Assembly (NCBI RefSeq): GCF_007859635.1
Contig: NZ_CP042306.1
Location: forward strand, 992,001-1,056,000
Direction: 5' to 3'
Length of the DNA stretch: 64,000 nt
From: Sphingomonas panacisoli
GTDB taxonomy: Bacteria > Pseudomonadota > Alphaproteobacteria > Sphingomonadales > Sphingomonadaceae
The position numbers and the translations under genes are program-made. Positions 9-58,677 of this stretch are shown in pieces (positions within the stretch are counted from its first letter, which is position 1; every line of letters begins with the position of its first letter). The notes beneath the pieces are model-generated. The model worked only from the letters and a program-made list of their open reading frames with translations. It ran no database searches and was not told where the DNA came from.

Positions 9-1304
9 CTATGAAGGCTTTTCCACTAAGGCGTTTGCAATCATCGCGCTCAGGGCTTCTTCTGCGGCGGCCTTTACGACACGATCGTCGGACAACAAGT
101 CACGCCGCATCCAGTTGGGGGCGCGCCTGACGACGTCGGCGATAATTCGCTCGGAGCTGGACATCATTGAGGTACGAGCAGGTTTCGAGGTTGTCGGCAA
201 CGTACCTATGTTTGCTGTTTTGACAGCTTGCCGATTGGGCCGGCGATCAAACTCATCGAAGAATCCGAGGCTTTGGGCGCGAAGGCGGCCGACATCCACT
301 CGAATGCCGGCCGCATCGTTCGCCAGGGTGTCGGGTGGTGAGCTACTTCGCGGTATCTGCTGATGGTAAAGCGCCACAATTTCCGACCGCGACAAGCTCG
401 GATTGCCGGCGACGTTTCCGACGACGCTGGCGAAGTTGAGCTTTCTCATGATCGCTTCGACACCGGGCGCGATCGCCTTGATGAAATAGTGCGAGTTCGG
501 GCTGCGGGTGAAATCGCGGTGCACTCGGCCGGCTCGGGCGCCGACCCGCTGGATCGCGAAATCGGCGAGTGCCGGTGTCGTGAATTCGAAATCCGGGTGC
601 CTGGTTTCAACAGGTCGGAGCTGCCGCGGCTCGGTGCGGCGTTCCCAAATCTGGAACAGTGCAGGCACGTTATACGGTTTGCCGCGGAAATGGAATGCGT
701 TGTCCGGCACCAGTTCTTCTCGAACCAGGTGAAAAAACCGATTGAGACGATTTTCGATCGACGCCTTTCGGAACGATCGCGGCACGATGAGCGCGATGAC
801 ATCGGCCTGGCGCGCCGCGTGGTTGAAGAACTTGACGGCCGTGCTGGCGTTTTTGCCAAACGGCGGGTTGCCGATGATGGCGCGCTGTCTGCTGCTTTTA
901 ACGTGGACCGTCAGGAAGTCGGCCTTGATGATGCCGGGGTATTTCGGTTCAACATCATAGGCGAGGCTGCCGGGGGGCAACAGTTTATAGAACGACCCCA
1001 TACCGGCGGACGGCTCAATCATCAGGTAACGAGCTGGATCAAAATGCTGTTTGAAGATCCGGTAGAAGTGTTTCGCGACGCCCGGGCGGGTGTAATATTG
1101 ATCGAGCCGGACATCCGACGGCCGATAGTCGGTTTTCGACTTTCGCTGACCGCGTTTACCGCCATTCTTGGCGACATTGGGTTGGACCTGGACGAGTGTT
1201 TCCGCCGACGGGAGAGCATCAGCTCGCGTCGATGCAGCGCGAACGACGGGGACATGGCGATAGACGTCGAACGTGCCGACGGGCAGCTTGGCTAACGAGA
1301 TCAT
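9..1304 (-). CDS. Adenine-type DNA methyltransferase (class I, SAM-dependent)
   Basis: 431 aa. The fold is visible from motif I EPSAGMGSF at about residues 97-105 (SAM binding) and motif IV NPPF at about 146-149, the catalytic (N/D)PP(F/Y) signature of N6-adenine and N4-cytosine methyltransferases. A YYTRP segment at about residue 70 resembles the start of such domains. The C-terminal 200 residues have no motif I recognise. The predicted reaction is transfer of a methyl group from SAM to an exocyclic base amine in DNA. No restriction endonuclease lies next to it inside the window, so it looks like an orphan methylase or an anti-restriction gene of the element. It stands alone, divergent from the next gene. 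Target sequence cannot be read from the protein. Confidence 0.8.
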   Translation of the reverse strand: MISLAKLPVGTFDVYRHVPVVRAASTRADALPSAETLVQVQPNVAKNGGKRGQRKSKTDYRPSDVRLDQYYTRPGVAKHFYRIFKQHFDPARYLMIEPSAGMGSFYKLLPPGSLAYDVEPKYPGIIKADFLTVHVKSSRQRAIIGNPPFGKNASTAVKFFNHAARQADVIALIVPRSFRKASIENRLNRFFHLVREELVPDNAFHFRGKPYNVPALFQIWERRTEPRQLRPVETRHPDFEFTTPALADFAIQRVGARAGRVHRDFTRSPNSHYFIKAIAPGVEAIMRKLNFASVVGNVAGNPSLSRSEIVALYHQQIPRSSSPPDTLANDAAGIRVDVGRLRAQSLGFFDEFDRRPNRQAVKTANIGTLPTTSKPARTSMMSSSERIIADVVRRAPNWMRRDLLSDDRVVKAAAEEALSAMIANALVEKPS

Positions 1305-1879
1305 GAGGAGACGTTCCTGTCAGTGAACGGCTCCCGGCGGCCGTTCAGGACAATCCCACCAGCCACTGGTGGAACTCGAGACGGTGCTCCTCTCGTCTCG
1401 ACACCGCGTACCGGGCGGCTAGCGACACACATCGATGAATTTCGACGACCGCCTCACCCTGCGCGACGCTCCGCGTGGATCGGGATTGGGCCGTGCGCCG
1501 TCAAACGACGCCTGTGTGCCTCTGCTCTATCAACTGTCCTACCGCATTCAGCAAGATCGGAGGCTGGTTAACGGCTGTACCGTTTCGATACAGTGACTTA
1601 GCTTGCCGCTTTCTCGTTCAATCGACCGCAGAAACGGACCGCTTCGGTCGCCGCCAAACGTCATCATTGTCGCCGCTGCGTGGAAAAGGGCTGCGGCCCA
1701 CCGCCCCGCTAAATAAAGGTCCCTTTGAGCGGACTGCGGAAAAGCGCGGCCGGTTGCAACCATCGCGGCAGGGCTGGGAACAGGGGACAGATTGAAATTG
1801 CAGTGAGGACTGGGAAGTAGAGGAAAAGAGTTGATATTCAGCTCTTGGCTTCCTGGTCCTTCTTGCAAGGAGGTCTGTG
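1305..1879. other. Intergenic region between divergent genes
   Basis: About 575 bases without a convincing gene. Short open frames exist on both strands but have no recognisable domain and no good ribosome site. It should hold the divergent promoters for the methyltransferase and the rightward gene at 1880. A short inverted repeat, CTGTA-9 nt-TACAG, lies near 1575-1593. The ribosome site AAGGAGG at 1867-1873 belongs to the next gene. Confidence 0.5.
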
Positions 1880-2641
1880 ATGCAATCACCTTTCGTGCCG
1901 ACCATCATTCAGTCGGTGGGGCTGGCATGCGTGCCGGTCGACGACATGCCGCCGAACACATCGCTCGCGCGAAAGCCGGTCGCGGCGGCGATCGTCACGA
2001 TCACTAGACGTGGTGATGGCCATCGCGACGCGGTCGTCAAATCCGTGTCGGACGCACGTGAACTCGAATGGCCGCTCCCGGTGTTGATTGATGACGCCTT
2101 AGTTGGTGGAGCGCCGACGATCATCGCGGACAGCGACCGCGACGTGCTGACCACCGAGGCAGCGTCGCGACGCTTCTTCGCTGAGCCAAAGCTCGGCGCG
2201 CTGGCGAAAGGGCAGGGGGTCATCGACCCTGCCGCCATGCTTGGCGAGCGGCACGATGAAGCGGCGCTGTGCCGAAGGCTCGGTATTCCCGCCAACCTCG
2301 TGCCGGATATGGACGTGGGCCGATGGTGGAACCGTAACGCGCCCGTTGCCGTCGAGGATGTCGCGCTGACGGCCGCTGTATCGCGGTTGGTATTATGGGC
2401 GCACTTCGCGTCGTTCCAGAGCGCCGAGCCCGATCCGTTTTTCGAGACGCTGTTGCCGTTGCGCGAACGGCTGATGGAACTGGAAGCTGATCATCCGGGG
2501 TTGAAGCCGTTTCTGGCGTCGCGACCGTTCCACCGCGCCGCATCGTTCGCGAGTTTCTATCGCGAGTATCGCGCCAAACGCGACGCCGGCGATACCGAAG
2601 CGAGGTGGGTGACGTTCGAGGACGGCCAGTCCTACGTCTGA
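1880..2641 (+). CDS. Hypothetical protein, possible divergent PolB-type 3'-5' exonuclease
   Basis: 253 aa from the ATG six bases after a strong AAGGAGG; a GTG three bases upstream is too close to that site. I do not recognise it firmly. The segment CRRLGIP followed by a D-rich stretch and a helical region with ED-x-ALTAAVSRL at about residues 130-165 resembles the end of predicted PolB-type 3'-5' exonuclease domains (pattern LGLPGK...DV.NT...R). The usual acidic residues of the first exonuclease motif are not clear, so it may be inactive or a different fold. It is followed by a strong hairpin and then by a gene with an intact DnaQ-like exonuclease domain, so a DNA-processing role is plausible but unproven. 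Confidence 0.55.
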   Translation: MQSPFVPTIIQSVGLACVPVDDMPPNTSLARKPVAAAIVTITRRGDGHRDAVVKSVSDARELEWPLPVLIDDALVGGAPTIIADSDRDVLTTEAASRRFFAEPKLGALAKGQGVIDPAAMLGERHDEAALCRRLGIPANLVPDMDVGRWWNRNAPVAVEDVALTAAVSRLVLWAHFASFQSAEPDPFFETLLPLRERLMELEADHPGLKPFLASRPFHRAASFASFYREYRAKRDAGDTEARWVTFEDGQSYV

Positions 2642-2666
2642 TTGCTGCCACTATCATCATGAACTT

Positions 2667-2698
2667 CGACAAGACCCCGCTTCGACGGGGTCTTGTCG
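2667..2698 (+). terminator. 13-bp perfect hairpin between two island genes
   Basis: CGACAAGACCCCG and its exact complement flank a 6-nt loop CTTCGA. Only a short T run (TTT) follows, so it could be an intrinsic terminator or an RNA-stabilising or attenuating structure. It lies 25 bases after the stop of the gene ending at 2641 and just ahead of the ribosome site of the next gene. Confidence 0.65.
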
Positions 2699-2716
2699 TT
2701 TCGAGGAGACGACATC

Positions 2717-3595
2717 GTGCCGCAATGGCTGTCGCCCGATACAGAAAGTGCTGCCGCCCTCCTGGAGGCGCATCCTGATTATCGTGTTCTAAGATCACTG
2801 CCGCCGCTCGACCTGCTGCCGCTCCCGGCGCCCGAGGGCCGGCTACGCACCGCCGCGATCATCGACACCGAGACCACGTCGCTCGATCCCGCAACCGGCA
2901 GCATCATCGAACTCGCCATCTGCGCGGTCACGTTCGATGGCCGCGGACGGATCGTCGGGATCGGTCCGGTCCATGATTGGCTGGAAGACCCCGGCCATCC
3001 GCTGCCGTCCGAAATCGTCAAGCTGACAGGACTGTGCGATCAGGACTTGTCCGGCCAGCGCATCGACGATGCCAGGGTGGTCGAGATGCTGTCGACCGCC
3101 GATCTGATCGTCGCGCACAATGCGAGATTCGACGCGACCTGGATCGAGCAACGCTATTCCAGCCTCGCCGGACAGGCCTGGTGTTGCTCGCTCACCGACG
3201 TGGATTGGCGAGGGCTAGGTTATGAAGGCCGCCAGCTCGGCGCCCTGCTCGGCGAGGCAGCCGGGTTCTTCAACGGCCGCCATCGTGCGGATTCGGATGT
3301 CGCGGCTTTGGTCGCGCTTCTGACGACGACGCTGTCGTCGGGGCGCACCGCGTGCAGCGAGATGATCCTGTCGGCGCAACGCCCGACCGTCCGGATCATC
3401 GCCGAGGGCGCGCGGTTCGAGGTGAAAGACCGGCTCAAGGCGCGGGCCTATAAGTGGGACCAGAATATCCGCCGCTGGGGGAAAGAGGTTACCAGCAATT
3501 CGGTCGACGAGGAGCGAGCTTGGCTCGCCGAGCAGGCCGGGTGCCGTAACCCGAGCATGCGCGACATCACATGGTATCAGCGCCACCGCGTCTGA
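2717..3595 (+). CDS. DnaQ-like 3'-5' exonuclease
   Basis: 292 aa if started at the GTG 2717, which follows AGGAG at 2702-2706; an in-frame TTG at 2693 would fall inside the upstream hairpin. The DEDD exonuclease motifs are complete: Exo I DTET at about residue 50, Exo II HNARFD at about 134 and Exo III HRADSD at about 188, the H-x4-D form of DEDDh enzymes. About 85 C-terminal residues form an extra domain, with VKDRLKARAYKWD and RRWGKEV. The family removes nucleotides from 3' ends of DNA or RNA; this one resembles stand-alone PolIII epsilon-like exonucleases of plasmids and islands. It is the second gene in a rightward series of unknown and relaxase-like genes, and a role in element maintenance or repair is inferred. 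Confidence 0.85.
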   Translation: MPQWLSPDTESAAALLEAHPDYRVLRSLPPLDLLPLPAPEGRLRTAAIIDTETTSLDPATGSIIELAICAVTFDGRGRIVGIGPVHDWLEDPGHPLPSEIVKLTGLCDQDLSGQRIDDARVVEMLSTADLIVAHNARFDATWIEQRYSSLAGQAWCCSLTDVDWRGLGYEGRQLGALLGEAAGFFNGRHRADSDVAALVALLTTTLSSGRTACSEMILSAQRPTVRIIAEGARFEVKDRLKARAYKWDQNIRRWGKEVTSNSVDEERAWLAEQAGCRNPSMRDITWYQRHRV

Positions 3596-3690
3596 TCCCC
3601 CCTCCACCATTCCAACCAATTTCACGAAATCTCGTGGGACCGCCCGCGCGGATCGCCGCCTTGTGCGGCATCACCCCCAAGGAGAAGTCT

Positions 3691-4317
3691 ATGTTCAGCC
3701 TGTATCACGACCGCCCGTTCAACGTCCGCTATGCCCTGCACCAGCACAGCGGACGGTACACGCCCGAGTTGCTGCGGACACATCGCACCGCGCGCGCCTC
3801 GTGGCTGTATATCCATCGTCAGCATGGCAGCGATCTGGTCGGCCCCACGCCCGACTGGTCGATCCGCGACGACCTGGTGGCAAGCGGTCGCTGCGCGCCC
3901 GCGCGCGCGAACCATCCTTCACTGGACGGTCTGGGATTGTGGGATCAGGCCGACACCCACGCCGCCCAAATCCGACCCGACGAACCGGTTTGCGCGCACG
4001 CGGTAGGGTCGCTCCCGATCGGTGCGGGCATCACCGGTTGGCGCAGCCTGATCGAAGGGTTCAGCGAAGATTATCTGACGTCTCAGGGCATGACCGTTGA
4101 TTGGGCGATCCATCAACGTGCTGCAGATGGTGATCGGCCGGAAATCCTGCCGCACTGCCACCTCCTGATCACGATGCGGGCGTTTGATGCGTCGCGGCCA
4201 GATCTTGGCCGCGTGCGCCAGAACTGGTTGCGCACCGATAAGGCGCGCAAGGCGCTCGCCGAGAAATGGTGGGCGTATAGCGGCATCACGCCGCGCATTT
4301 ACGCTATCGCGGCCTAG
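3691..4317 (+). CDS. MobA/MobL-like relaxase-domain protein, stand-alone
   Basis: 208 aa from ATG 3691, six bases after AAGGAG at 3679-3684; the frame is open further upstream but has no ribosome site. The middle and end match the MobA/MobL relaxase core: an LWDQAD helix, then GMTVDWAIHQ, then PHCHLLITMRAF, which is the paired-histidine metal site of HUH nucleases, then a W-rich end. Missing are the N-terminal tyrosine region (AAAYRSG type) and the long helicase half of TraA-type relaxases. It may therefore be a minimal or degenerate relaxase, or an HUH-like accessory protein. Relaxases nick at an origin of transfer; none was identified here. Family assignment rests on motif order and the conserved histidines. 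Confidence 0.65.
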   Translation: MFSLYHDRPFNVRYALHQHSGRYTPELLRTHRTARASWLYIHRQHGSDLVGPTPDWSIRDDLVASGRCAPARANHPSLDGLGLWDQADTHAAQIRPDEPVCAHAVGSLPIGAGITGWRSLIEGFSEDYLTSQGMTVDWAIHQRAADGDRPEILPHCHLLITMRAFDASRPDLGRVRQNWLRTDKARKALAEKWWAYSGITPRIYAIAA

Positions 4318-4331
4318 ATCGGACGGCAAAG

Positions 4332-4404
4332 GGGGCGACCTGGCCAGCCGAGTCGGCGCGCCAATGCACGGAACAAACCGGTACGAGCTGGAGCCGGTCG
4401 CCCC
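4332..4404. repeat. Long inverted repeat upstream of the 4464 gene
   Basis: GGGGCGACC at 4332-4340 is exactly complementary to GGTCGCCCC at 4396-4404, with a second inner pair CCAGC / GCTGG. The loop is about 40 nt. It lies between the relaxase-like gene and the next gene and could fold in RNA as a leader or 3' structure, or be a DNA site. No T tract follows. Confidence 0.5.
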
Positions 4405-4463
4405 TATAAGCTGGTAGTTCGGGCTCAATCCTGGACGTGAAACCTTAGTCCAGGAGAATTACC

Positions 4464-5831
4464 ATGGCCAATCCCAAGCCACTCAGCTCGTTGGAAGCCG
4501 AGTTTCGTCGTTGTTTGCGGCGGATCGATCCCGTGACCGATGCCGGTAACGGCCAGTCGCTGGCCGACGCCGCTGCAAGTCTGATCGCCGCCGACGCCAT
4601 GCAGGCCGAGGTGACCCCGGAAGCTGCGGCTCGGATACCGGACGCGGAATTGATGGCGGGGATGACGGCAATAGCGGATCTGCTGCGCGGAGGGGTGACC
4701 AAGGTCGTCGCGCTTCCGTTCGGCACCAAGGCGCGCTGGATCAATCACGGCCTCGTGACGGTCGGCGACCAGCGCTACGTCATGGTCGATATCTGGGGCG
4801 GCATGCACCGCGAGCATGAGGCGCCAGCGTCGCAAGTCGGCCCGAACCTCGAGATGTTTCTGGCCGAACTGAAGCATGAGACCGAAGGGCAAGCGTGTCG
4901 CGGGCTGGGCATGCCCGTGGTCATCACCGAAGAGGGCTCGGTTGACGCGTACTCGCTCCACTTTGCGCCGTGCGCTGCAGCTGGCGGGGCATCGCTTAAT
5001 GTGCCGATCGAGCGGCCGATCAACCAGCTGCCGCACGACGCCTTCGACCTGATCGTCAAGTTGATGGCTTATGCGATGGAAATCTTCTGGAGCCAGCGCT
5101 CGTCGCTTGCGCGGCGGGCGAGGTCGGCGAAAACGACGTTCGAAACCGAGGCGGCACTTGCCGGGACCGAAGCTGCCGGCCTGAACCTCGTCGATTTCTG
5201 GTCGAAGCCATTCGAGGTAGTGGACTTTACGGGCGAGACGATGCCCGAGCAGCTCACCCTGTATATCGGCCTCCAAACCTTTGACGCGGCGCTGCGTCCG
5301 GGCGTCGAACACTGGCTCATGCCTGGCAAGGCACAAGCGCGAGTGGCGATGCAAGAAGCGGTGCGGGCGCATGTCGGAAAAGCAAAGCGGCTGAAGCAAG
5401 CTGGCGCGCTATGTGTCGAAGGGTTGGCGGCCACCATCCTTGAGGCAGCACCCGGCGGGAGCATCCCCGTCCTGCGGCGCCTCTCGCAACGGATGGCGAC
5501 CGATGTCGTCTTGCCGATCTCACGGGGCCGCCAACTCGTGTCTCGCCTCTATTGGTCAAACGGGACGATCAAGGCTTGGCAGATAGCGCACGAACGCGTT
5601 CAGTTTCGTGACGAGGAGGTGACGCTCTGCGATCTTGCCATGCCCAATGCGATTGCAGATGGCCTCGTAGGTCGCCGGCTGGACGAGATCATTGATATGC
5701 CGATGCCATGCGCCGCCAGGTTTCGCTGGGTCGAGCGCCGTTCCGAAGGGGCCCTTGTCCTGCGGTTGCACGACGTGTTTCACGACATCGATTTTGCATC
5801 GGGAGAGATCGGGGAGGCGATACCGTTCTGA
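4464..5831 (+). CDS. Hypothetical island protein
   Basis: 455 aa, ATG preceded by AGGAGAATTACC. I recognise no domain. The protein is soluble-looking, without a signal peptide or membrane segment, and rich in acidic and aliphatic residues. The first 90 residues are helical, and there is a tryptophan-containing segment MVDIWGGMH near residue 110 and an RARSAKTTFETEAALAG helix near 215. It is the longest rightward gene of the island cargo, between the relaxase-like gene and a small membrane protein. Its function is unknown; association with element biology is inferred from position only. Confidence 0.6.
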   Translation: MANPKPLSSLEAEFRRCLRRIDPVTDAGNGQSLADAAASLIAADAMQAEVTPEAAARIPDAELMAGMTAIADLLRGGVTKVVALPFGTKARWINHGLVTVGDQRYVMVDIWGGMHREHEAPASQVGPNLEMFLAELKHETEGQACRGLGMPVVITEEGSVDAYSLHFAPCAAAGGASLNVPIERPINQLPHDAFDLIVKLMAYAMEIFWSQRSSLARRARSAKTTFETEAALAGTEAAGLNLVDFWSKPFEVVDFTGETMPEQLTLYIGLQTFDAALRPGVEHWLMPGKAQARVAMQEAVRAHVGKAKRLKQAGALCVEGLAATILEAAPGGSIPVLRRLSQRMATDVVLPISRGRQLVSRLYWSNGTIKAWQIAHERVQFRDEEVTLCDLAMPNAIADGLVGRRLDEIIDMPMPCAARFRWVERRSEGALVLRLHDVFHDIDFASGEIGEAIPF

Positions 5832-5901
5832 CGCGCGGCGGTGGCGAGAAGAAGTGTGAAGGTGGGCAGGAAGGGCAGACCATGTGTTGATAGGAAAAAA
5901 G

Positions 5902-6201
5902 ATGATTGTCGCTGCGCTCTCGATCGGTCTCATTTATGGCCTCGCACGATGGTTCCCGCGCATGCTCGTCGCCGTGGCCGCCACGTTCATCGCCGTCATG
6001 CTTGCCAAGAAGGCACAGCGTTTGACCCGCGCCATGCTCGCAAATCGGCCCTGCGATCTCGACTATGATCGCAAGCCGAGCCGCGCGCAGCGACGCCAGA
6101 TGCGCGCAAGCCTGCGGGTTGCGCTCAAGCAAACCGATTTACGAAGCTTGTTTCCAACGACGGTGGCTGGCGCGGAGCGATGGATCAGTCGAGCGCGCTG
6201 A
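5902..6201 (+). CDS. Small membrane protein, unknown function
   Basis: 99 aa from ATG 5902, six bases after AGGA; a GTG at 5884 is in frame but lacks a ribosome site. The N-terminal 40 residues contain two short hydrophobic stretches (AALSIGLIYGLA and MLVAVAATFIAVMLA) forming one or two membrane segments. The rest is basic and probably cytoplasmic (RKPSRAQRRQMRASLR). It ends convergently 24 bases from the gene on the other strand. I do not recognise a family. Confidence 0.5.
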   Translation: MIVAALSIGLIYGLARWFPRMLVAVAATFIAVMLAKKAQRLTRAMLANRPCDLDYDRKPSRAQRRQMRASLRVALKQTDLRSLFPTTVAGAERWISRAR

Positions 6202-6225
6202 TCCTCCATCATGATGCCAAGGATG

Positions 6226-6900
6226 TCACCGCGCCCACGGTAACCGGTACGCGGTCGATCCGGTTTCAACGATCAGCACGGAAGCGCTATTGGCCTGCTC
6301 GACCGCCGTCACGCGCCAGCCCGATCCGCGCAACGAGGCGTAGTCTACGACTTCCTCCACCAGCCGACCGACAAAGCCAATCGCCATCGTTTCTGGAATT
6401 GGACGGCCCAGCTCGATCCGTAGTAACCCGAAGCTGGTGTCGAACGTCACCGTCTTCAGCCGGACGCGGACCTCGATCGAATGGCCATTGATGCGGACTT
6501 TCGCGGAATCGTAATTTGACAGGTCGACACTGGTCCCGTGCATCAACTGCGTGTCCGGCCATGCTGGTCGCAAACCTGCGACGATATGGCGAAGAACATG
6601 CTTCCCCCACGACGACATGTTACATCGCGATGATAGCCGGGGTCGACGTGGCCACCCATAACCTGGCTCGATCGTTTCGATCACATCGTCGAGCTCCAGG
6701 CCATCGCTCGCCAGCAATGCGATTAGAAACTGAGATACCGACCGAACCGTCGCGCCGATCTCCTGCCGGAAAATTTCGCGCGCACGGTCGGCATAGCGCT
6801 TCTCGGCTGCTCCTATCTCGCGCCGCGCCTTACTGCGGGCCAATTGCATCCGCCGGGCGTCAACGGGCGAGGGCGAGTCGGGGCCTGCATCGCCGCTCAT
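6226..6900 (-). CDS. Unknown protein coupled to the kinase gene
   Basis: 224 aa. The ATG at 6900 overlaps the kinase stop codon as ATGA, so translation is probably coupled and this is the fourth gene of the vWA-phosphatase-kinase operon. No domain is recognisable. The N-terminal 80 residues are charged and helical (ARRMQLARSKARREIG, then EKRYADRAREIF), and the C-terminal half looks like a beta-rich fold (RINGHSIEVRVRLKTVTF, LLRIELG). There is no signal peptide or membrane segment. By position it is a candidate accessory factor, substrate or effector of the phosphorylation triad; this is inference from synteny alone. Confidence 0.6.
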   Translation of the reverse strand: MSGDAGPDSPSPVDARRMQLARSKARREIGAAEKRYADRAREIFRQEIGATVRSVSQFLIALLASDGLELDDVIETIEPGYGWPRRPRLSSRCNMSSWGKHVLRHIVAGLRPAWPDTQLMHGTSVDLSNYDSAKVRINGHSIEVRVRLKTVTFDTSFGLLRIELGRPIPETMAIGFVGRLVEEVVDYASLRGSGWRVTAVEQANSASVLIVETGSTAYRLPWAR

Positions 6901-8941
6901 GGCGTGCACTTCTTCCGGATAGTGCTCGTGCCATGGCATTTGGGATAGGCGCTGCAGCCCAATAACGGCACAGGCTTTCCGTTGACAGCTGGTCCCCAGC
7001 GCTTGACCATCGACGACCCGCAACGCGGACACGTCCTGGCCGCCCGCTTCTTTCCGGCCTTCCCTTTTTTAACTTTGGCGGGGGTTGGCGCGGGCAGCGT
7101 GCCCAGGAAAATGTTTGGCCGGGCACGGCCGGCGATTCCGAGATGCGCCAGATCCGCAGTTGCCTGATCGCGCGCCGCCAAGGCTGCTTCAACGTCCCGG
7201 TCGAGGAGCCACACCGCTTTTCGAACACGCGCAACCTTCGTCTCGAGGTCGGGAAGTAGGGACTGCGCTCGAAGTTCGAGCTGCCGCTCATGCTGCCGGA
7301 CCGCCGCTTCAGCGTTGGCAAACACTTTGTCCCGGTCCGCCGAACGTGCGGCGTGCTCCGCCCACACCGCGATTTCTTCGCGCCAGAACAGCAGCGATAC
7401 GATCCGCGCTTCGCCGACGCCGCCGATGGCGGTTAGGGCAGGGCGGGATATATCCGCCGCGCTCACAATCCCATGGGTGGCGAGGTGGGTGCGAAGAGCC
7501 GAACCGATACCGGGGACCTTTGCCTGGTTGATTGTTTCGCGCGCCATTATGCCTGTCGCCATCTTGGCGGTGATCCGTGCGGCCGTCCGTGCGACGACCG
7601 CCAATCTGGCAGTGCGGATGCGATCAATCTGATCGACATAGCCACGCAACTGGTCGATCAGCTTGGCGATATCCCAAATGCCGAGCCGCGAACGCCACTC
7701 GTCCAGCGCTCGGGTCGCCGCCAGTTGCGCGGCGTCGTTGCGCTCGATGAACTTCTGCATGACCCCTGACAGCAGTAGACCGGTTCTGCCCGCTACCGCG
7801 GCCAGCGCCTTTCTGGCCCCTTTGCTCGGCGGCATGTCCTGTCGCGACCACATCGGCATCATTGCTTCGCCTGCGTGACGCTTCGCATATTTGATCGCCT
7901 CGGAGACATCGTCGACAATCTTGGACCGTTGTACCGGCTGGCCAGGGTTAGTCGTCGTCACCCCACCCGGGAAAATCGGCCGCCCGGTCTCACGCTCGAT
8001 GCGGCACCACGGGCAAGACGCAGCCTCTTGCGGGAAGTAGTGATTTAGGATGCGCGGGCAGGGCGTCAGGCTCGTCGCGAAACCGCCAAGCGCGTTGACC
8101 CATTCGGCGGCGCTGGGTCTCGAACGCCCGCGGCCCGCAAATGCACGCTCGAACAGGATGCGGATCGAGCGTGGCAGATCATCCAGCCTTAGCGCGCCGG
8201 GGGGGGCGTCGCACCGACGGTCCGCAGGAGCGAATAGGCGAACCGGCCCTGGACGATCGCTTGCTCGAGTGGAACCGGCCGGCCACGCACGACACCGGCA
8301 TAGGGATGGCGACCCAGTGCCAGGAGCTGGAATAGGATGACGGCAAGCCCGAACGCGTCGTGATCGATTGTGCGATCGATCGCGCCGAATGGCATGCCCT
8401 GGATCTCGGGCGGCGTGAACTCGGGCATGCCGACGCGGCAACGGTGCATACCGATTTGAAAACTGTCGGCGTCGATCAACGTAACGGTGCCGTTCTGTGC
8501 AACGAGGAAGCCCGCGCTGTTGATATCGCCGATCACGACGCCGGCTGCGTGCACGTTTGCCACGATCCGCGCGACGTTGAGGGCGACGTGCACAATGAAC
8601 CGATAATCGGCTTTCGGAAAATGCTCGCGGCGGGACCCTGTAGCAATCAGTTCGTGGATCGGCTGGTGACCCATCACGCGCCGCATCGTAAAACCGGCGA
8701 ACCGTCCGTCGGCGGTTCGGACAATCTCGAGCGGGAAGGTTACGTTCGAACAAGCAGCGCCGAGACTGCGAGCGATGATGTCGCGGACCTTGGCCTCGCG
8801 TGCGGCATCGGGCGTGAGGTAGACCTTGGCCGCGCGTCCCGTGCCATCAGCAGCCGCGTAAATCTCGCCTTCGCCGCCGCGCCCGATGCGGTCCGCAATG
8901 GGAAAGTGAGTGCTACCGCACAGCAAGACCGGCGCTGTCAT
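6897..8941 (-). pseudogene. TerY-P/YegI-type protein kinase with HhH and zinc ribbon, frameshifted
   Basis: Coding in two frames joined at a C8 tract (G8 at 8199-8206 on the plus strand); one extra C would give a continuous protein of about 681 aa. The kinase part has GRGGEGEIY (ATP loop, about residues 20-28), AKVY lysine, GDIN catalytic loop and DADSF in place of DFG. After the break come the family's FAGRGRSRPS and CPWCRIE segments, a helical region, two helix-hairpin-helix motifs (VPGIGSALR and IGGVGEARI) and a topoisomerase-type C4 zinc ribbon (CPRC ... GCSAYPKC). This is the E. coli YegI architecture, a protein kinase tied to DNA binding. ATG 8941 was chosen over an upstream TTG. As written, the protein stops at the end of the kinase domain (8189), losing the DNA-binding half. 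Whether this is decay, slippage or assembly error is open. Confidence 0.85.
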
Positions 8942-9705
8942 CCGGCTTTTATCCAAATGCCGCGAGGATCAGGGTCTTGTCGTCGTCGGTGCGGGCGTTC
9001 ACGCCGTCCGAGATCGAGGAACGCTGCCAGCTTGCGTGACAGCGGTTGGTCGTGACCGATGATCACTCCCGCGGCCATCGTCCTGAAAAGCCCGTCGAAA
9101 CACGGCGGGTGAGCGGTGCGGCTTGCGAAATCTAGCGCCAGCCGTTCGAGACCGTCGGTCAGGAGCGCCAGGCGATCGATGTGAAGTTCGCCGGTAACGC
9201 CGATGCGCAGGCGCGGATTGGTGTCGGTGATGAAATAGGTGGTGGAAGCGTATTCACCATTATCGGGCCAACTCAGCTCGATGAGTGCCGCGTCGTCGAT
9301 AGCTCTGGCAATGATGGTTCCGTCGCCGATGTGCGCCGTAATGGAGCTTGTCCCGTCGCTGATCGCTAGCACCAGTGTCGTCGCGAAACTGCCCGGCGAG
9401 CAACCGAGGCGATCAGCCGCGACGATGATCATCAGCCGAACTTCTGCGACCCACAACTCGATCATAGCCGGGCTCGGCATGACGCCAGCCTTCGATATCC
9501 AGTCTTTGGCTCTGCTAGTCATGACACGCGCTGTGATCGCGGCGCCGTATCCGCCGAGCGCTGCGCTGCCGGCCCCGTCGCACGCGACCGCGATCAGGAA
9601 TCCGGGCGGCGCCGTCAGGACGCGCCATGCATCCTGACGGCGCTCACCCGCCTGTGCGTGGGCAGTGCCGCGTCGCGACGCGGCTACCCAGGTCCAGTTG
9701 GACAC
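8938..9705 (-). CDS. PP2C-family protein phosphatase (TerY-P/YegK type), altered C-terminus
   Basis: 255 aa from GTG 9705, four bases after the vWA stop. PP2C motifs are visible: RRQDAW near residue 23, ACDGAGSA near 41-48, SFATTLVLA near 105, HIGDGT near 122 and LTDGLER near 185. The last PP2C motif, which supplies a metal-binding Asp, is present in the wrong frame: beyond residue 230 the frame gives LGRRERPHRRR, while the next frame reads VNARTDDDKTLILAAFG and stops at 8949. A one-base insertion near 9004-9018 explains this. The reaction is Mg/Mn-dependent dephosphorylation of Ser/Thr, presumably opposing the adjacent kinase. As written, the stop overlaps the kinase ATG; in the repaired frame the gap is seven bases. 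Confidence 0.8.
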   Translation of the reverse strand: MSNWTWVAASRRGTAHAQAGERRQDAWRVLTAPPGFLIAVACDGAGSAALGGYGAAITARVMTSRAKDWISKAGVMPSPAMIELWVAEVRLMIIVAADRLGCSPGSFATTLVLAISDGTSSITAHIGDGTIIARAIDDAALIELSWPDNGEYASTTYFITDTNPRLRIGVTGELHIDRLALLTDGLERLALDFASRTAHPPCFDGLFRTMAAGVIIGHDQPLSRKLAAFLDLGRRERPHRRRQDPDPRGIWIKAG

Positions 9706-9709
9706 GTGC

Positions 9710-10419
9710 TTAGACGATCGACGCCCAGCCGGCGGGGCCGGCCGGATTGGTCAGGGTCACCGCCTGGCCGGTGGTCGAGCGCGACACCGCGGACAGCGAG
9801 CTCGACAGCCACCGGAACATCGCGCCGAATGCGAGCCCGCGCAGCATTACCGGGGCGCTGACGGAGATGTTCGCGAGGGTATTGGTATCCGCACTGTCTA
9901 CACCGACCGCGAAGAACGAGAAGCTCTTGCGCCGCTCGCCTTCCTGAACGCGGCGCGCGGCGCGCTCCCAACTGTCAGTCGGCGCCCCGTCAGTAACCAT
10001 GAAGATCATCGGCCGGTATGGCGTGATACCCGCACTGCGATACTGCCGCTGACGCGAGCTTACGAGATCGATAGCGACGTTGATCGCCTCGCCCATTGGG
10101 GTGCTACCTTTGGCCTTGAGAGGCTGCGGATAGAACGCCTTCGCCGATCCGAACTCGGCGAGGACGTTAACGCTGTCACCGAACGTGACTACGGCGATTT
10201 CGAGGCGTTTGGCTGCGAGGCTGTCTTCGCGAACGTCGTTCGCGAACTGCTGCAGGCCAGCGTTCAGCGCCGCGATCGCCTCGCCCTGCATCGAGCCGGA
10301 TATGTCGAGCAGCAACACGCAAGCGCAGCGCGGCTCGCAGTTGTCGGCGAACTCGACCAGATCGAACCCCCGGGGGCGAGATCGTCGCCGAACGGCACCT
10401 GTACATAATCGTCCATCAT
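9710..10419 (-). pseudogene. vWA-domain protein (TerY/YegL type), 5' frameshift
   Basis: The best start is ATG 10419, six bases after AGAGG. Its frame reads MMDDYVQVPFGDDLAPGG and then leaves the conserved frame at a C5G5 run (10367-10376). One added G restores FDLVEFADN, then EPRCACVLLLDISGSM, the characteristic YegL/TerY entry to the vWA domain, giving about 236 aa. DISGSM is the metal-ion adhesion site (D-x-S-x-S); MVTDGAPTD near residue 140 is its third part. It is the first gene of the four-gene operon. vWA proteins of this group are predicted scaffolds that link the kinase and phosphatase to targets. Without repair only the frame beginning at an internal GTG (10318) is expressed, which has no ribosome site. 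Confidence 0.8.
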
Positions 10420-10544
10420 TGCTTACCTCTTCATGGCGAGGCCATCTGCCGACACGGCAACGACGACCCCGCAGACTACGGATCGCAGAGTGTCGTGAGC
10501 CAACGGCGCACGGCCGATGATCTCCACTCAGCTATTTGAAGGGG

Positions 10545-10572
10545 CGTTTGCCGATGTCGATCTCGGCAAACG
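10545..10572 (-). terminator. Candidate hairpin downstream of the integrase gene
   Basis: CGTTTGCCGA and TCGGCAAACG form a perfect 10-bp stem with an 8-nt loop, about 140 bases after the integrase stop and 125 bases before the vWA start. No good T run follows on either strand. It may end the integrase transcript or separate it from the triad operon. The remaining bases between 10420 and 10708 should hold the triad promoter; no clear hexamers were picked. Confidence 0.4.
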
Positions 10573-10708
10573 TAAACGCGTCGCGTCAGGCGCGGTTATC
10601 ATCGACTCGGCCAACCAGGCGCTGCTGGATCGACAGGCGTCTCGACTCAGCGGACAAACATCCGCGTCATTCGTGTCTCGTACTAAAAGACTGATTACAA
10701 GTACTTCC

Positions 10709-12532
10709 TCAAGTGCGCGCAGCGCTCTCAATGGCATTCCAATCTATGAACCCCAGTTTGAGCCGCTTGATGTGACGGTGGAGGTTGGCGACAGCCCGGC
10801 CAAAACCGTACCCGCCACCGACGTCGGCCGGCGCATGGCCGGTCAACTGATCATGCACATCCTTTGGGATATCCGCGTCGCGGCACAAATCCTTGAACGT
10901 ATGGCGAAAGCTGTAGAACACGATCCGCGGATCCTTGCTCACCGCATGATCGATCACGCGGGCAGCGCGGCGGCTTGCTTCCTTGGTCTTGACCCCCAGC
11001 TTGTCGGCCTTGAGGTCACGAAAAAGCCGTACGGCACCACTGGCACGCTGCCGCTCCACATAATCCATGAACCCAAGTTCGATGAGCTTGGGATGAAGCG
11101 GCAGGACGCGGCGAGACCCTTCGGTCTTCACGCGGTTCTGCTCGGTCTCGACGTCGGGATCAACGTAGTCGGTGACGTCGATATAGGGGACGCGCTGTTC
11201 GGTCTTCACGTCCGTCAACAGCACTTGTCCCAGCTCTTCGATGCGACCGCCGGTCATTAGACCGAGCAGGAATAGCCAACGAAGCGTGATGTCGGAGACT
11301 GCTGATTTGCTTTGGGGAATCGACCACGGCTGCGCGAACAGCGGGTCTTTGAACAGCTTGGCTAACTCGTCCTTGGTAAACGGACGCCGATCGCCTTTCT
11401 TCGAATAGCCCTCGACCTTGATCCCCGCGGCCACGTTGGCCGGAATGTAGCGTTCCTGGAACGCGAATCCGAGCAGCGCCTGGATCGCGCCGAGATATTT
11501 CTTGATCGACGCCGGCATCACCCGGTCGAGATCATCGCGCCGCGAGTAGAGCGCGTGCTGATCAACGAACGCCAATTTGCGATGCGTCCGTGGCATGCTT
11601 TTGGGCATTTGCGCGACCGCATCGCGATACTCGAAGCAATCGTCCGCCGTGATCTCGCCAATCCCGATATCGCCGAGATAGCTCGTGAAGTCCGCGACTG
11701 CCTTGTCGGCGGCCGCCTGCATCTTCAGCGTCGGCTTGCGCTTGTCCTTCCATTCCGCGGCCAAGTCGCGAAGATTCATGTCGGGCCGGGCGCGCGACTT
11801 ATTCGGCCGACGTCGCAGCGATGCTTCCCGTGGGGTCTGCTCACGGATTTCTGGTGACGCCAACGCCGCGGCGATCGCGTCGGCAAGCGGCTCGTCGATA
11901 CCCGGCACGTTGCCTTCTGCAAGGCCGATCTGTCGCTTGAGCGCTGCAACTTGCTCGGCGAGCAGTGGACGCCACCGCCGACGCGGCGTGCGGCGCTGAT
12001 AGTCGAACCAACAATCGCCGGGCGCGCGGTGGCTGATCGCGATTTCCGCCTCTAACCTTGCGATCGTTTCGTCGGATAGTTCGTCGTCGGTGTCGCTGCC
12101 GGCGACCCGCTTGCGGTACGCGATCCAATCCTCAGGGGTCATCGACTGTGCCGTCGGCAGCCGTTCACCGGCTAGATCCTCGACCGCGTCATCGAGCTCG
12201 CGTAGAATGAATCCCACATCGAGACCGCCCGAAGCGAAGCCGGTGCCGGACCGGCGGGTGAGGTGGCGCTCCACGAGAGCCTGTGCTTCCTCGGGCGAAA
12301 GCGCGCCGCCGCCCTGTTTCTTGAGCGTCTCGCGAAACGCGGCGATCTTTTTCTCGAACTCGCCGTTCTCGATCGCCAGCCGCTTTTCGGCCTCGCGGCG
12401 GTCAGACGTCCTGAGCGTCACCTTGTAGAGCTCGCCACAGTTGAACAGCGGACGCAGCGCTTCCGGCACCTTGCGGCGGAGGTAGAAGATGCCGCTACGC
12501 GGGTCTTCCCACAGTCCCTTGATCCTCGTCAT
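10709..12532 (-). CDS. Tyrosine recombinase/integrase of the island
   Basis: 607 aa. Catalytic-domain landmarks are TGGRIEEL (first Arg, about residue 430), EGSRRVLPLH (lysine-hairpin region), YSFRHTF (second Arg, about 543), LTGHAP and GGGYGFG, with the nucleophile Tyr at about 576. The N-terminus YLRRKVPEALRP is typical of long phage-type integrases of alphaproteobacteria, with a core-binding SAM-like domain near residues 250-350. The enzyme cuts and rejoins DNA at attachment sites. It reads away from tRNA-Glu, whose 3' end lies 86 bases from its start, so excision and integration very probably use that tRNA end. The gene is intact. Confidence 0.92.
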   Translation of the reverse strand: MTRIKGLWEDPRSGIFYLRRKVPEALRPLFNCGELYKVTLRTSDRREAEKRLAIENGEFEKKIAAFRETLKKQGGGALSPEEAQALVERHLTRRSGTGFASGGLDVGFILRELDDAVEDLAGERLPTAQSMTPEDWIAYRKRVAGSDTDDELSDETIARLEAEIAISHRAPGDCWFDYQRRTPRRRWRPLLAEQVAALKRQIGLAEGNVPGIDEPLADAIAAALASPEIREQTPREASLRRRPNKSRARPDMNLRDLAAEWKDKRKPTLKMQAAADKAVADFTSYLGDIGIGEITADDCFEYRDAVAQMPKSMPRTHRKLAFVDQHALYSRRDDLDRVMPASIKKYLGAIQALLGFAFQERYIPANVAAGIKVEGYSKKGDRRPFTKDELAKLFKDPLFAQPWSIPQSKSAVSDITLRWLFLLGLMTGGRIEELGQVLLTDVKTEQRVPYIDVTDYVDPDVETEQNRVKTEGSRRVLPLHPKLIELGFMDYVERQRASGAVRLFRDLKADKLGVKTKEASRRAARVIDHAVSKDPRIVFYSFRHTFKDLCRDADIPKDVHDQLTGHAPADVGGGYGFGRAVANLHRHIKRLKLGFIDWNAIESAART

Positions 12533-12617
12533 TCCCTATCTCCGGTGTACCCGTTGGGTGTACTCGCCGAGACCTTAATGACAGGAAAACCGCATAATCC
12601 GCCAGTTTTGGCGTATC

Positions 12618-12640
12618 TGGTGACCCCTACGGGAATCGAA
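12618..12640. other. Probable attachment-site core (tRNA-Glu 3' end)
   Basis: The tRNA 3' half, from the T arm to the encoded CCA, is the usual crossover region for integrases placed like this one. No second copy of this sequence was found by eye in 1-12617, so the other attachment site must lie to the left of the window. Exact core length cannot be set without the partner. Confidence 0.45.
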
Positions 12641-12692
12641 CCCGTGTTTCAGCCGTGAGAGGGCCGCGTCCTAACCGCTAGACGAAGGGGCC
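12618..12692 (-). tRNA. tRNA-Glu (anticodon CTC)
   Basis: 75 nt including encoded CCA. The minus strand starts GGCCCCTTCGTCTAG, has the anticodon arm GCCCTCTCACGGC with CTC, and T arm GGGTTCGATTCCC, and ends AGGGGTCACCA. The acceptor stem is seven pairs with a G2-U71 wobble. The gene appears functional, so the element preserved or restored the 3' end on integration. The following 130 bases up to 12824 hold no gene. Confidence 0.95.
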
Positions 12693-12824
12693 GAAAAGCG
12701 GGAACGCGGCGCAGTAGGGCGGTGGGGGCGGAGCGTCAAGGCGATTGCGCGGCGGTAGTAGCCACCGGCGAATCACGGCCAACAAGTGACCGAGGCAGAA
12801 TGTTCACGAAGCTTTTTGATGCAT

Positions 12825-14759: not shown

Positions 14760-15002
14760 TAACGCACTCCACAAACGCTGGTAGCAGCCGCGATCCGTTC
14801 TCGCGGATATATTAAGTGCGTGCCCATTAATGAAAAACAGCGGCTTGAGATAGAGCCGGCGCTCACGCTCGGTAAGCTTCGAGCGAAAGCTTCGGCGGAA
14901 GGCGGCTGGAATGCCCTGGGGACGCGACTGCAACGCGAGCAGGCATAGAGGTGAAGAATCGATAATTGCTCGCGTTGTGCCCTGTCGTTAAGAGGCGTTC
15001 AA

Positions 15003-57391: not shown

Positions 57392-58677
57392 TCAGTCGAC
57401 CGGCAGCGTAATGGTCGCCCGTGCGCCGCCTTCGGGCCGGTTGGTCAGGATCGCATCGCCGCCATGACGCCGCGCGATCGATCTGACGATGGCGAGCCCG
57501 AGCCCCGTGCCCCCGGTATCCCGATTCCGCGACGGATCCCCGCGCACGAAGGGTTCGAACAGGCGTTCGGCCTGGGCCGGGTCGATGCCCGGTCCGCTAT
57601 CGTCGATCGTCACGCGGACGATGCCATCTGCCATGCTCCAGCCGAGCGCGGCACCGTCGCCATAGCGGATCGCGTTTTCGATCAGGTTGGCGAACAATCG
57701 CCGCAACGCCGCCGGGTCGCCGCGCACGACGGCGCGTGGGCCGGGCACGATCGTTACGTGACCACCCGCTACCGCCATGTCCTCGACCAGACTGTCGAGC
57801 AGGCTGCCCAGATCGACGCGCGCGTCGGTCCGCACGCTCATATCGTCCCGCGCGAAGCCGATCGCCGCGCCGATCATCGCGCGCATCTCGTCGATATCGG
57901 CGGCGGCGCGCGCGGGCGTCGTCGGGCAATTGCTCGACCCAGAAGGCGAGGCGTGACAGCGGCGTGCCGAGGTCGTGCGCGATCGCCGCCAGCATCGCGG
58001 TGCGCCCTTCGGCATGGCTGGCGAGGCGACCGTGCATCGCCTTCAACGCGTCCCCCAACTCCGCCACCTCGCGCGGCGCGTTCGCCGGCAGGTCGTCGAG
58101 CGGCGCGCCGGCGGTCGCCCGGGTCGCCGTCGCGGCCAACTCGCGCAATGGTCGCGAGATTGCGCGCGTGATGACCCAGCCCATCGCCGACAACACTACC
58201 AGCAAGATCGCCATCGTCAGGATCGTCGCCCAATGCCAGTGGCTGAGAAAGGCGGGCGGCGGGGTGAAGGCGATCCGCCACGTCCCGTTGAGCCGCGCTC
58301 CCGCGACGAACGGCGCGGCCAGGCCGTCGGGCGGTGCCTCGCGGCCGAGGTCGCGATAGACCACCGCGTCGCCGTCCGGCACGCCGAGTTCGAATGCGAG
58401 TAGATGCGAGAAGGCCGGGTCGCGCTGCTCGCGGGGGGTGGGGGCTGGGCGCGGTCGCGCTGGTCACGACGCGCAACTGCCATTCCGCCATCGTCGTGGG
58501 CGCCTTGCCGCCCCGCAGCAAGGCGGCGATCGACGCGACCGGCTGCGGCGCGGGTTTGGGCGGCGGGCCCGAAAAGGTCACCGCGAACAACGCGATCGTC
58601 GCCACCGCGACCGACGTGATAACGAGCGCGAGGATCGACCAGACGATCGAGCGGCGGGACCTAGCGGCGGTCGACAT
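57392..58677 (-). pseudogene. Sensor histidine kinase with two frame breaks
   Basis: Three frames in series give one histidine kinase of about 427 aa if two single bases are removed. Part 1 (from ATG 58677): basic N-terminus and membrane segment IVWSILALVITSVAVATIALFAV. Part 2: GDAVVYRDLGREAPP, a second membrane helix (ILTMAILLVVLSAMGWVIT), HAMP and the H-box AIAHDLGTPLSRL. Part 3: IDEMRAMIGAAIGFA, N-box LFANLIENAIRYG, DSGPGIDP and GGTGLGLAIV. Breaks are at the C6 run near 58433-58444 and in the GC dinucleotide run near 57901-57915. The ATG overlaps the response-regulator stop by 17 bases, so the pair is a two-component system. The family's EnvZ-like form is usual. Assembly error is the simplest explanation. 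Confidence 0.82.

What the first reader, a model, noticed from the sequence alone, without database searches (positions are those of the whole stretch)
6226..10419. vWA / PP2C / kinase-HhH-zinc-ribbon operon (TerY-P type) on a tRNA-Glu island
Directly visible: a DISGSM vWA protein, a PP2C phosphatase and a protein kinase whose C-terminus has HhH motifs and a topoisomerase-type zinc ribbon, in one operon. This matches the TerY-P triad known from comparative genomics and the E. coli yegL-yegK-yegI set; TerY-P has been listed among candidate antiphage systems in published defence screens (from memory). Finding it with a DNA methyltransferase, an exonuclease and an integrase makes it a good defence- or DNA-processing candidate. 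Its function in this element is inference.
Basis: partly seen in the sequence, partly recalled or inferred. Interest (0 to 1): 0.75.

Follow-up and report, generated by a model that had tools for sequence, protein, structure and literature searches.

The report
Broken kinase–phosphatase–vWA operon on island
A mobile island in a Sphingomonas chromosome carries a four-gene operon for a protein kinase with DNA-binding-type domains, its phosphatase, a metal-binding partner and an unknown protein; it is a variant of a known signalling module of unclear purpose, and in this genome three of its four genes read as broken.

Summary
On the minus strand, 10419 to 6226, lie a vWA gene, a PP2C gene, a kinase gene with HhH region and topoisomerase-type zinc ribbon, and a fourth gene (g4) whose ATG overlaps the kinase stop. 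The triad is of the E. coli YegL-PphC(YegK)-YegI type (55, 32, 37% identity). Of 80 kinase loci from other genomes, 76 have all three genes, 74 in the same order. PADLOC's TerY model hits ours only marginally, and K-12 YegL no better, so "TerY-P antiphage system" is an analogy, not a membership. Against an 88% identical, intact island in S. echinoides, the window copy has one frame-breaking indel in each triad gene and no clear one in eight other island genes: decay or assembly error. The Sphingomonas clade lacks YegI's hydrophobic linker, so its kinase is probably cytosolic. g4 belongs to a Sphingomonas family usually found without the triad; its predicted fold matched nothing convincing. Most likely the intact operon is a nucleic-acid-triggered phosphorylation switch carried as defence-like cargo; no result here shows that function. 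A variant of a known module, of moderate interest.

The parts
9710..10419 (-). vWA gene (YegL/TerY-like). Double ATG at 10419-10414, stop 9712-9710; frame break near 10366, about 17 codons in.
   Evidence: PF00092 2.9e-13; 55% identity of the S. echinoides copy to YegL; indel; start and stop codons
8938..9705 (-). PP2C phosphatase gene (PphC/YegK-like). GTG start; frame break near 9013, so the C-terminal DDDKT stretch lies out of frame.
   Evidence: PF13672 6.7e-36; 32% identity of the S. echinoides copy to PphC; indel; frames
6897..8941 (-). Protein kinase with HhH region and C-terminal C4 zinc ribbon (YegI-like, no hydrophobic linker). Frame break near 8204 in G8.
6226..6900 (-). g4: fourth gene of the operon, 224 aa, unknown family; ATG overlaps the kinase stop (ATGA). 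Stop included.
   Evidence: 12 homologues; 39 of 295 genus genomes; no profile hit better than Pfam E 0.26; start and stop; model pLDDT 84.3
5884..6201 (+). 105-aa ORF, collinear in S. echinoides (104 aa there)
4464..5831 (+). 455-aa protein without a family hit, 92% DNA identity with the S. echinoides copy
3691..4317 (+). MobA/MobL-domain protein (ORF open from 3571; ATG after AAGGAG at 3691)
   Evidence: PF03389 42.2 bits, above cut-off 26.7; MobQ model 45.1 bits, far below its cut-off 200
2693..3595 (+). 3'-5' exonuclease (DnaQ-like), NF006615
   Evidence: 251 bits, above cut-off 207; PF00929 1.2e-14
1877..2641 (+). 254-aa protein without a family hit
9..1304 (-). DNA-methyltransferase-like protein, 431 aa
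   Evidence: phrog_5172 (unknown function) 9.8e-70 and phrog_799 (DNA methyltransferase) 3.3e-13; no Pfam or NCBIfam hit at 0.01
10709..12532 (-). tyrosine integrase, 607 aa, with N-terminal DUF6538
   Evidence: PF20172 45.9 bits; phrog_1 integrase 2.3e-33
12618..12692 (-). tRNA-Glu (CTC), right-hand edge of the island
   Evidence: homology with S. echinoides ends at its 5' end, where that genome has tRNA-Glu (TTC)

Best explanation
This is the cargo operon of an integrative, probably mobilizable, element of Sphingomonas: a YegL-PphC-YegI-type phosphorylation switch plus a fourth protein. Shown here: gene identities, order, conservation, an island shared between divergent species, and the frame breaks. 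Inferred for intact copies: the HhH + zinc-ribbon tail lets the probably cytosolic kinase engage DNA or RNA; the PP2C enzyme keeps the kinase and its targets dephosphorylated in normal cells; the vWA protein, through its metal-dependent (MIDAS) site, links kinase and phosphatase or recruits the substrate. Foreign or damaged nucleic acid would tip the balance toward phosphorylation of host, element or phage targets and slow invader replication. g4 would be a partner adopted from the element's own gene pool and made with the kinase by translational coupling. In the window genome the printed sequence predicts truncated or altered vWA, PP2C and kinase products, so this copy is either decaying or mis-assembled.
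For: Gene identity. Kinase residues kept in the window pieces: the GRGGEG loop, the AAK lysine, GDIN and the DAD aspartates, conserved columns of A2, where the four zinc-ribbon cysteines are invariant too. Triad order 74 of 80. Island 88% identical to S. echinoides over 12.7 kb, against a longest match of 72% over 3.8 kb for a 19-kb chromosomal query, at a different tRNA-Glu gene. Integrase and relaxase domain. g4 co-directional with ATGA overlap; 6 of 12 g4 homologues share a longest-contig length with a kinase homologue, and a seventh, P0001, is the S. echinoides copy beside its triad. From papers (passages only): PphC dephosphorylates YegI and YegI autophosphorylates (PMC13232886); a TerY-P system protects PAO1 against phage with most cells surviving (PMC10889362); the zinc ribbon is proposed to bind nucleic acid by analogy with the OB-fold (PMC11090510); COG4245 and COG4248 genes are listed near restriction genes in a P. 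aeruginosa gene table and in a figure legend on a gut metagenome locus (PMC5467263, PMC3861447).
Against: No result here shows defence, DNA binding or phosphorylation. PADLOC's TerY model hits only marginally and its PP2C search is empty; the kinase hits are to PD-T4-6 kinase models. The passage I could read on E. coli YegI calls it membrane-bound and says that no condition promoting yegI and pphC expression has been defined. All three triad genes are frame-broken in this genome. g4 does not track the triad: 0 of 20 fetched regions of 19 genomes show a triad gene, and only 5 genus genomes have both g4 (39 of 295) and a kinase at E<=1e-30 (28 of 295), where chance alone would give 3.7. Relatives of the kinase are rare in phages: 1 of 50,697 records and 1 viral contig locus.
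Confidence: 0.45

Rival explanations
1. The triad is a stress-response switch (DNA damage, metal or envelope stress), not a defence system: mobile-borne accessory physiology like the chromosomal E. coli yegLKI set.
For: The closest studied relatives that I found are E. coli YegL/PphC/YegI. The TerY-P literature proposes metal-sensing phosphorylation switches (PMC11090510 passages). The 80 fetched loci include contigs of cyanobacteria, acidobacteria and rhizobia, far from any Sphingomonas island.
Against: Carriage on an integrase/relaxase island and on plasmids (19 plasmid records, 12 of them predicted conjugative), patchy presence (28 of 295 genus genomes at E<=1e-30) and loss of the hydrophobic linker fit mobile nucleic-acid-linked cargo better.
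Confidence: 0.3
2. The operon serves the element itself: phosphorylation controls its integrase, relaxase or exonuclease, coupling excision or transfer to DNA state, with g4 as an element-maintenance factor.
For: g4 belongs to a family found in Sphingomonas regions with a DnaQ-like exonuclease, often with a tRNA gene in the region. A mob-like gene lies beside g4 in L139. The exonuclease lies divergent from a triad in S. parapaucimobilis.
Against: The triad occurs far outside such elements, and the 20 g4 regions fetched from other genomes lack it. No excision or transfer data. No control was made for how often tRNA genes fall in such regions by chance.
Confidence: 0.15
3. In this genome the triad is simply decaying: the three frame breaks are real and the operon is dead cargo (independent of what intact copies do).
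For: The uncompensated frame-breaking indels in coding sequence of the island relative to S. echinoides are one per triad gene; the eight other genes show none beyond a compensating pair in the relaxase gene and single-base gaps at the stop of the 455-aa gene and in the first codon of the 105-aa ORF. The genome is 99.87% complete, which argues against a high genome-wide indel error rate. 10 of 10 Sphingomonas kinase loci inspected have a long open frame across the kinase.
Against: Two of the three sit in a G8 or C5G5 run, typical of long-read errors. A histidine kinase at 57392-58382 is also frame-split, so breaks exist elsewhere. Under random placement all three falling in the triad has a chance of about 3% (my arithmetic from lengths), which is not decisive.
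Confidence: 0.5

Closest known systems
E. coli K-12 YegL - PphC (YegK) - YegI
   Same: Homologous vWA (55% identity), PP2C (32%) and kinase (37% in the kinase domain, 29% over 96 residues of the C-terminal part) to the S. echinoides copies; yegL and pphC are adjacent in the same order, with yegI after the oppositely oriented yegJ.
   Different: YegI shows no C-terminal zinc ribbon and has a strong hydrophobic stretch (KD19 2.27 at residue 393) that the window clade lacks. The K-12 region read has no further gene in a g4 position and its triad ORFs are open.
TerY-P antiphage system (Gao 2020, recalled and via PMC11090510; P. aeruginosa versions in PMC10889362)
   Same: vWA + PP2C + kinase composition; kinase with a C-terminal domain thought to bind nucleic acid (PMC11090510 passages).
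   Different: PADLOC TerY matches ours at only E 0.0069 over a short stretch, and no PADLOC model hits the PP2C. The stand-alone system's kinase is described with a C-terminal OB-fold (PMC11090510); ours has HhH + zinc ribbon.
TerY-P modules of Type II/III-A CoCoNuT systems
   Same: Kinase fused to a C-terminal zinc ribbon, with PP2C and TerY-like vWA (PMC11090510).
   Different: No McrB/McrC, helicase or HEPN hit among the island ORFs scanned with Pfam.
Triad clusters on Sphingobium/Sphingomonas plasmids (pBSY17_2; S. panacis DCY99; S. parapaucimobilis YK209)
   Same: vWA, PP2C and zinc-ribbon kinase in the same order.
   Different: Different neighbours (on pBSY17_2: ATP-binding protein, DNA repair exonuclease, AbiE pair, integrase, GIY-YIG); no g4 hit in the fetched regions.

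Membership tests
YegL-PphC-YegI type triad | vWA protein with MIDAS residues, homologous to YegL | tested here: met
YegL-PphC-YegI type triad | PP2C phosphatase homologous to PphC | tested here: met
   PF13672 6.7e-36; 32% identity, 6e-31 for the S. echinoides copy. In the window the last metal-site stretch is out of frame.
YegL-PphC-YegI type triad | Kinase with C-terminal HhH region homologous to YegI | tested here: met
   3e-61 over the kinase domain and 1e-6 over residues 471-562; Pfam HHH_5 itself only 0.018
YegL-PphC-YegI type triad | Conserved co-directional vWA-PP2C-kinase order | tested here: met
   74 of 80 loci; 4 lack a gene (in 3 of these the first match begins within 150 bases of the contig end) and 2 have another arrangement. 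The loci were found through the kinase.
YegL-PphC-YegI type triad | Hydrophobic (membrane) stretch after the kinase domain, as in YegI | tested here: not met
   Window linker KD19 maximum 1.04; the 19 scored relatives P0013, P0014 and P0016-P0032 at most 1.55; YegI 2.27. Not a requirement for homology; marks a variant.
YegL-PphC-YegI type triad | Intact reading frames in this copy | tested here: not met
   One frame-breaking indel in each triad gene
TerY-P antiphage system (PADLOC/Gao 2020) | Clear match to PADLOC's TerY profile and partner models | tested here: not met
   TerY 13.9 bits, E 0.0069, 45 of 277 positions; PP2C none; kinase PD-T4-6 models best at 1.7e-9. The own-genome search with the TerY profile rang in no control either, so that call alone is inconclusive.
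TerY-P antiphage system (PADLOC/Gao 2020) | Kinase with C-terminal OB-fold | tested here: inconclusive
   Sequence profiles show a zinc ribbon, no OB family; the kinase was not folded
TerY-P antiphage system (PADLOC/Gao 2020) | Protects against phage | not testable with these tools
   needs a plating assay
CoCoNuT-associated TerY-P | Adjacent CnuB/C (McrBC-like), CnuH and CnuE | tested here: not met
   Pfam scans of the main ORFs from 9 to 14933 gave none
Integrative mobilizable element | Integrase at a tRNA gene | tested here: met
   same arrangement in S. echinoides
Integrative mobilizable element | Relaxase gene | tested here: met
   PF03389 above cut-off; short protein, activity unknown
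Integrative mobilizable element | Direct repeat of the tRNA 3' end at the other edge | tested here: inconclusive
   None found in 40 kb to the left; the only other genomic match to the 21-base end is at 2342487 with 2 mismatches

The most novel reading that the evidence does not exclude
A cytosolic, zinc-ribbon subclade of the YegI kinase has been recruited with its phosphatase and vWA partner into a family of Sphingomonas islands and coupled with an element-borne protein of a possibly new fold (g4). Together they would form a four-protein, nucleic-acid-triggered phosphorylation defence, or element-guarding system, that the defence library used here misses. Loss of the triad while g4 and the rest of the element stay intact in the window would then reflect a cost of running the switch.
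Probability: 0.13. Interest if true: 0.65.

Novelty: new variant of a known kind. Interest (0 to 1): 0.38.

Why it matters
YegL/PphC/YegI-type triads keep their gene order across distant bacteria and are not recognised by the defence profile library used here, yet in the passage I could read no condition that promotes yegI and pphC expression in E. coli has been defined. A soluble, mobile, compact version with open frames in a type strain (S. echinoides ATCC 14820) would make the question of what these triads do directly testable.

Tried and rejected
Programmed frameshifting as the reason for the three breaks: rejected, because the S. echinoides genes and the kinases inspected in other Sphingomonas have uninterrupted frames and the three contexts differ.

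"Stops inside" in other Sphingomonas kinases as a sign of common decay: not supported. In one search, seven matches at E<=1e-120, in seven genomes (G324, G327, G342, G366, G417, G466, G569), are listed with stops. The loci held for three of these (L163, L165, L166) have long open frames, which fits a match running past the gene end; the other four were not inspected. Among L160-L169, 10 of 10 have a long open frame across the kinase; two of them (L163, L169) end without the zinc ribbon.

g4 as an obligate partner of the triad: not supported outside the close clade. Besides the counts in the Against line, in G425 and G324 a kinase lies on the same contig as g4 but about 11-15 and 23 kb away, outside the stretch fetched for G425; none was fetched for G324.

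Left edge of the island: homology with S. echinoides and 3P27F8 stops at -14 and 17 of the window; no attachment repeat found.

A home-made gene finder with frameshift states gave 12, 6 or 2 frameshift calls in 104 kb by penalty. It missed two of the three triad breaks, and several of its calls look like overlapping or adjacent genes, so it was not used as a count.

Search for the flanking 702-aa gene in the genus gave only distant matches (68% identity or less for the two longest), so no empty site was looked for further.

Three of 80 loci were dropped from the hydrophobicity count (frame too short or running off the contig).

Paper searches naming TerY-P, YegI/YegK/YegL, PphC, COG4248/COG4245 and Sphingomonas were made; (TerY-P with Sphingomonas) listed no paper. 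The two primary papers on YegI and PphC are not held. Of the papers cited I saw passages only.


Full report
What is there. On the minus strand of the window, from 10419 down to 6226, lie four genes in a row: vWA, PP2C, kinase and a fourth, here called g4. The vWA gene starts at a double ATG (10419-10414) and stops at 9710. The PP2C ORF runs 9705-8938. The kinase ATG is 8941-8939, its TGA is 6899-6897, and g4 starts at 6900, so stop and start overlap as ATGA. Pfam places vWA (2.9e-13), PP2C (6.7e-36), kinase (3.3e-5) and zinc ribbon (9.5e-6); the HhH hit is weak (0.018), and the kinase, zinc-ribbon and HhH scores lie below Pfam's cut-offs. g4 has no hit better than E 0.26 in Pfam and none in NCBIfam, PADLOC or PHROGs.

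Family placement. Against E. coli K-12 (region read), the intact S. echinoides copies are 55% identical to YegL, 32% to PphC, and 37% to YegI over the kinase domain, plus 29% over 96 residues of the C-terminal part that carries the HhH region. In the alignment of 16 kinases with long open frames the glycine loop, the lysine, the GDIN aspartate, the DxD aspartates and four zinc-ribbon cysteines are invariant; the window pieces retain them. Of 80 loci fetched through the kinase from a collection of one genome per species (the best 80 of 455 that encode a relative), 76 have all three genes and 74 have them co-directional in the order vWA-PP2C-kinase. In three of the four with a gene missing, the first match begins within 150 bases of the contig end. 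Since the loci were picked by the kinase, this measures company kept by that kinase, not by vWA or PP2C in general.

Not the catalogued TerY-P. PADLOC's TerY profile gives the window vWA 13.9 bits (E 0.0069) over a short stretch, no model hits the PP2C, and the kinase hits mainly PD-T4-6 kinase models, best 1.7e-9. E. coli YegL and PphC behave the same, and YegI hits PD-T4-6 and MkoA models weakly. In the eLife CoCoNuT paper (passages read), TerY-P means vWA + PP2C + kinase with a C-terminal zinc ribbon, and stand-alone antiphage versions carry an OB-fold instead (PMC11090510). In P. aeruginosa PAO1 a TerY-P system protected cells, most of which survived infection (PMC10889362, passages). These are analogies for the present set. 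Two further papers list COG4245 and COG4248 genes among or near restriction genes (a gene table, PMC5467263, and a figure legend, PMC3861447; passages).

A soluble subclade. 72 of 77 kinases from the 80 loci (three dropped as too short or cut) have a hydrophobic 19-residue stretch (mean Kyte-Doolittle 1.6 or more) after the kinase domain; E. coli YegI has one at residue 393. That simple scan also counts hydrophobic HhH helices (for example L018), so the linker between the CxWC motif and the HhH was scored alone. All 19 proteins P0013, P0014 and P0016-P0032 score 1.55 or less, and the window 1.04. Among the remaining 10 scored (P0033-P0043 without P0040) values run 1.59-2.46; P0040 has 0.76 over a short linker; P0015 and P0044 could not be scored. 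The window's kinase is therefore probably cytosolic, unlike YegI, which the literature describes as membrane-bound (PMC13232886 passage).

The island. The window aligns collinearly with S. echinoides ATCC 14820 from 17 to 12693 at 88% identity, extending to -14 in the own genome. Homology ends at the 5' end of the tRNA-Glu gene in both; the window tRNA has anticodon CTC, the S. echinoides one TTC. A 19-kb chromosomal stretch of the window finds as its longest match in S. echinoides 72% over 3.8 kb, so the island was very probably transferred rather than inherited. It carries a 607-aa integrase, a MobA/MobL-domain protein, a DnaQ-like 3'-5' exonuclease above its NCBIfam cut-off, a DNA-methyltransferase-like protein, and 455-, 254- and 105-aa proteins without a trusted family hit. 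No direct repeat of the tRNA end was found to the left, so the left edge is unresolved. Sphingomonas sp. 3P27F8 has a related island; within the 22 kb fetched there is no match to this integrase or the 455-aa gene.

Frame breaks. Relative to S. echinoides, gaps fall mostly in spacers. Inside coding genes, the uncompensated frame-breaking ones are one in vWA (near 10366), one in PP2C (near 9013) and one in the kinase (near 8204). The eight other genes have none beyond a compensating pair in the relaxase gene and single-base gaps at the stop of the 455-aa gene and in the first codon of the 105-aa ORF. The lengths give about a 3% chance that three random breaks all fall in the triad (own arithmetic). 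The genome is 99.87% complete, which speaks against pervasive indel errors. On the other side, two of the breaks sit in a G8 or C5G5 run, and a histidine kinase at 57392-58382 is also split. Whether the operon is dead or mis-assembled is open.

g4. Twelve homologues were found. Six share a longest-contig length with a kinase homologue, and a seventh, P0001, is the S. echinoides copy beside its triad. The family occurs in 39 of 295 genus genomes at E<=0.001. Twenty regions fetched from 19 genomes show no triad gene (two of these regions are under 5 kb). Five genus genomes have both g4 and a kinase at E<=1e-30 (own, G324, G327, G425, G466), against 3.7 expected from 39 and 28 of 295; in G324 and G425 the two lie 11-23 kb apart. 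Of 16 triad-less loci compared, 9 have the exonuclease nearby; 9 of 18 scanned loci hold a tRNA gene and one a tmRNA, without a control for chance. g4 is therefore first of all a marker of Sphingomonas islands, adopted into the triad operon in one clade. The better of two models (pLDDT 84.3) has a long N-terminal helix and a strand-rich C-terminal half, and matches nothing convincingly.

How it most likely works. In E. coli the phosphatase dephosphorylates the kinase, and the kinase autophosphorylates (PMC13232886 passage citing the primary papers, which I could not read). From that and the anatomy I infer a switch: phosphatase keeps it off, nucleic acid at the HhH/zinc-ribbon tail turns it on, vWA organises it with a metal ion, targets unknown. 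That this serves defence is inferred from mobile carriage (also 19 plasmid records, 12 predicted conjugative), patchiness (28 of 295 genomes) and the TerY-P analogy; I hold it at a little under even odds. Against it, kinase relatives are rare in phage collections (1 of 50,697 phage records; one viral-contig locus), and no functional result exists here. Stress response and element control remain live rivals.

Noticed in passing
window 57392-58382, - strand: A sensor histidine kinase is split between two frames: HAMP and HisKA in one ORF, HATPase in the other. A frameshift or sequencing error outside the island.
   Followed up: partly
Looks like a backbone of a Sphingomonas island family.
   Followed up: partly
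L017, L044: S. echinoides (G327) and Sphingomonas sp. 3P27F8 (G466) each hold three YegI-type kinase loci; the kinase frame in L044 reaches 987 aa.
   Followed up: no
L117 (Sphingobium pBSY17_2, 64146-78699 of the record): The plasmid triad sits behind an AbiEi/AbiEii pair, a DNA repair exonuclease, an 887-aa protein and an ATP-binding protein, and before an integrase and a GIY-YIG protein; the part from the large protein to the triad recurs on a S. panacis plasmid (L013).
   Followed up: partly
window 12600-12613, - strand: Just inside the island next to the tRNA end, the palindrome-like CGCCAAAACTGGCG is shared by both islands; possibly part of the attachment or integrase-binding site.
   Followed up: no
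window 4464-5831: A 455-aa protein without a family hit, the best conserved gene of the island (92% DNA identity with S. echinoides); no match in the 22 kb fetched from 3P27F8.
   Followed up: no
L130 12469-17903 (genome 984469-989903): A 1536-aa GAF/PAS hybrid histidine kinase and a LytTR response regulator lie just left of the island.
   Followed up: no
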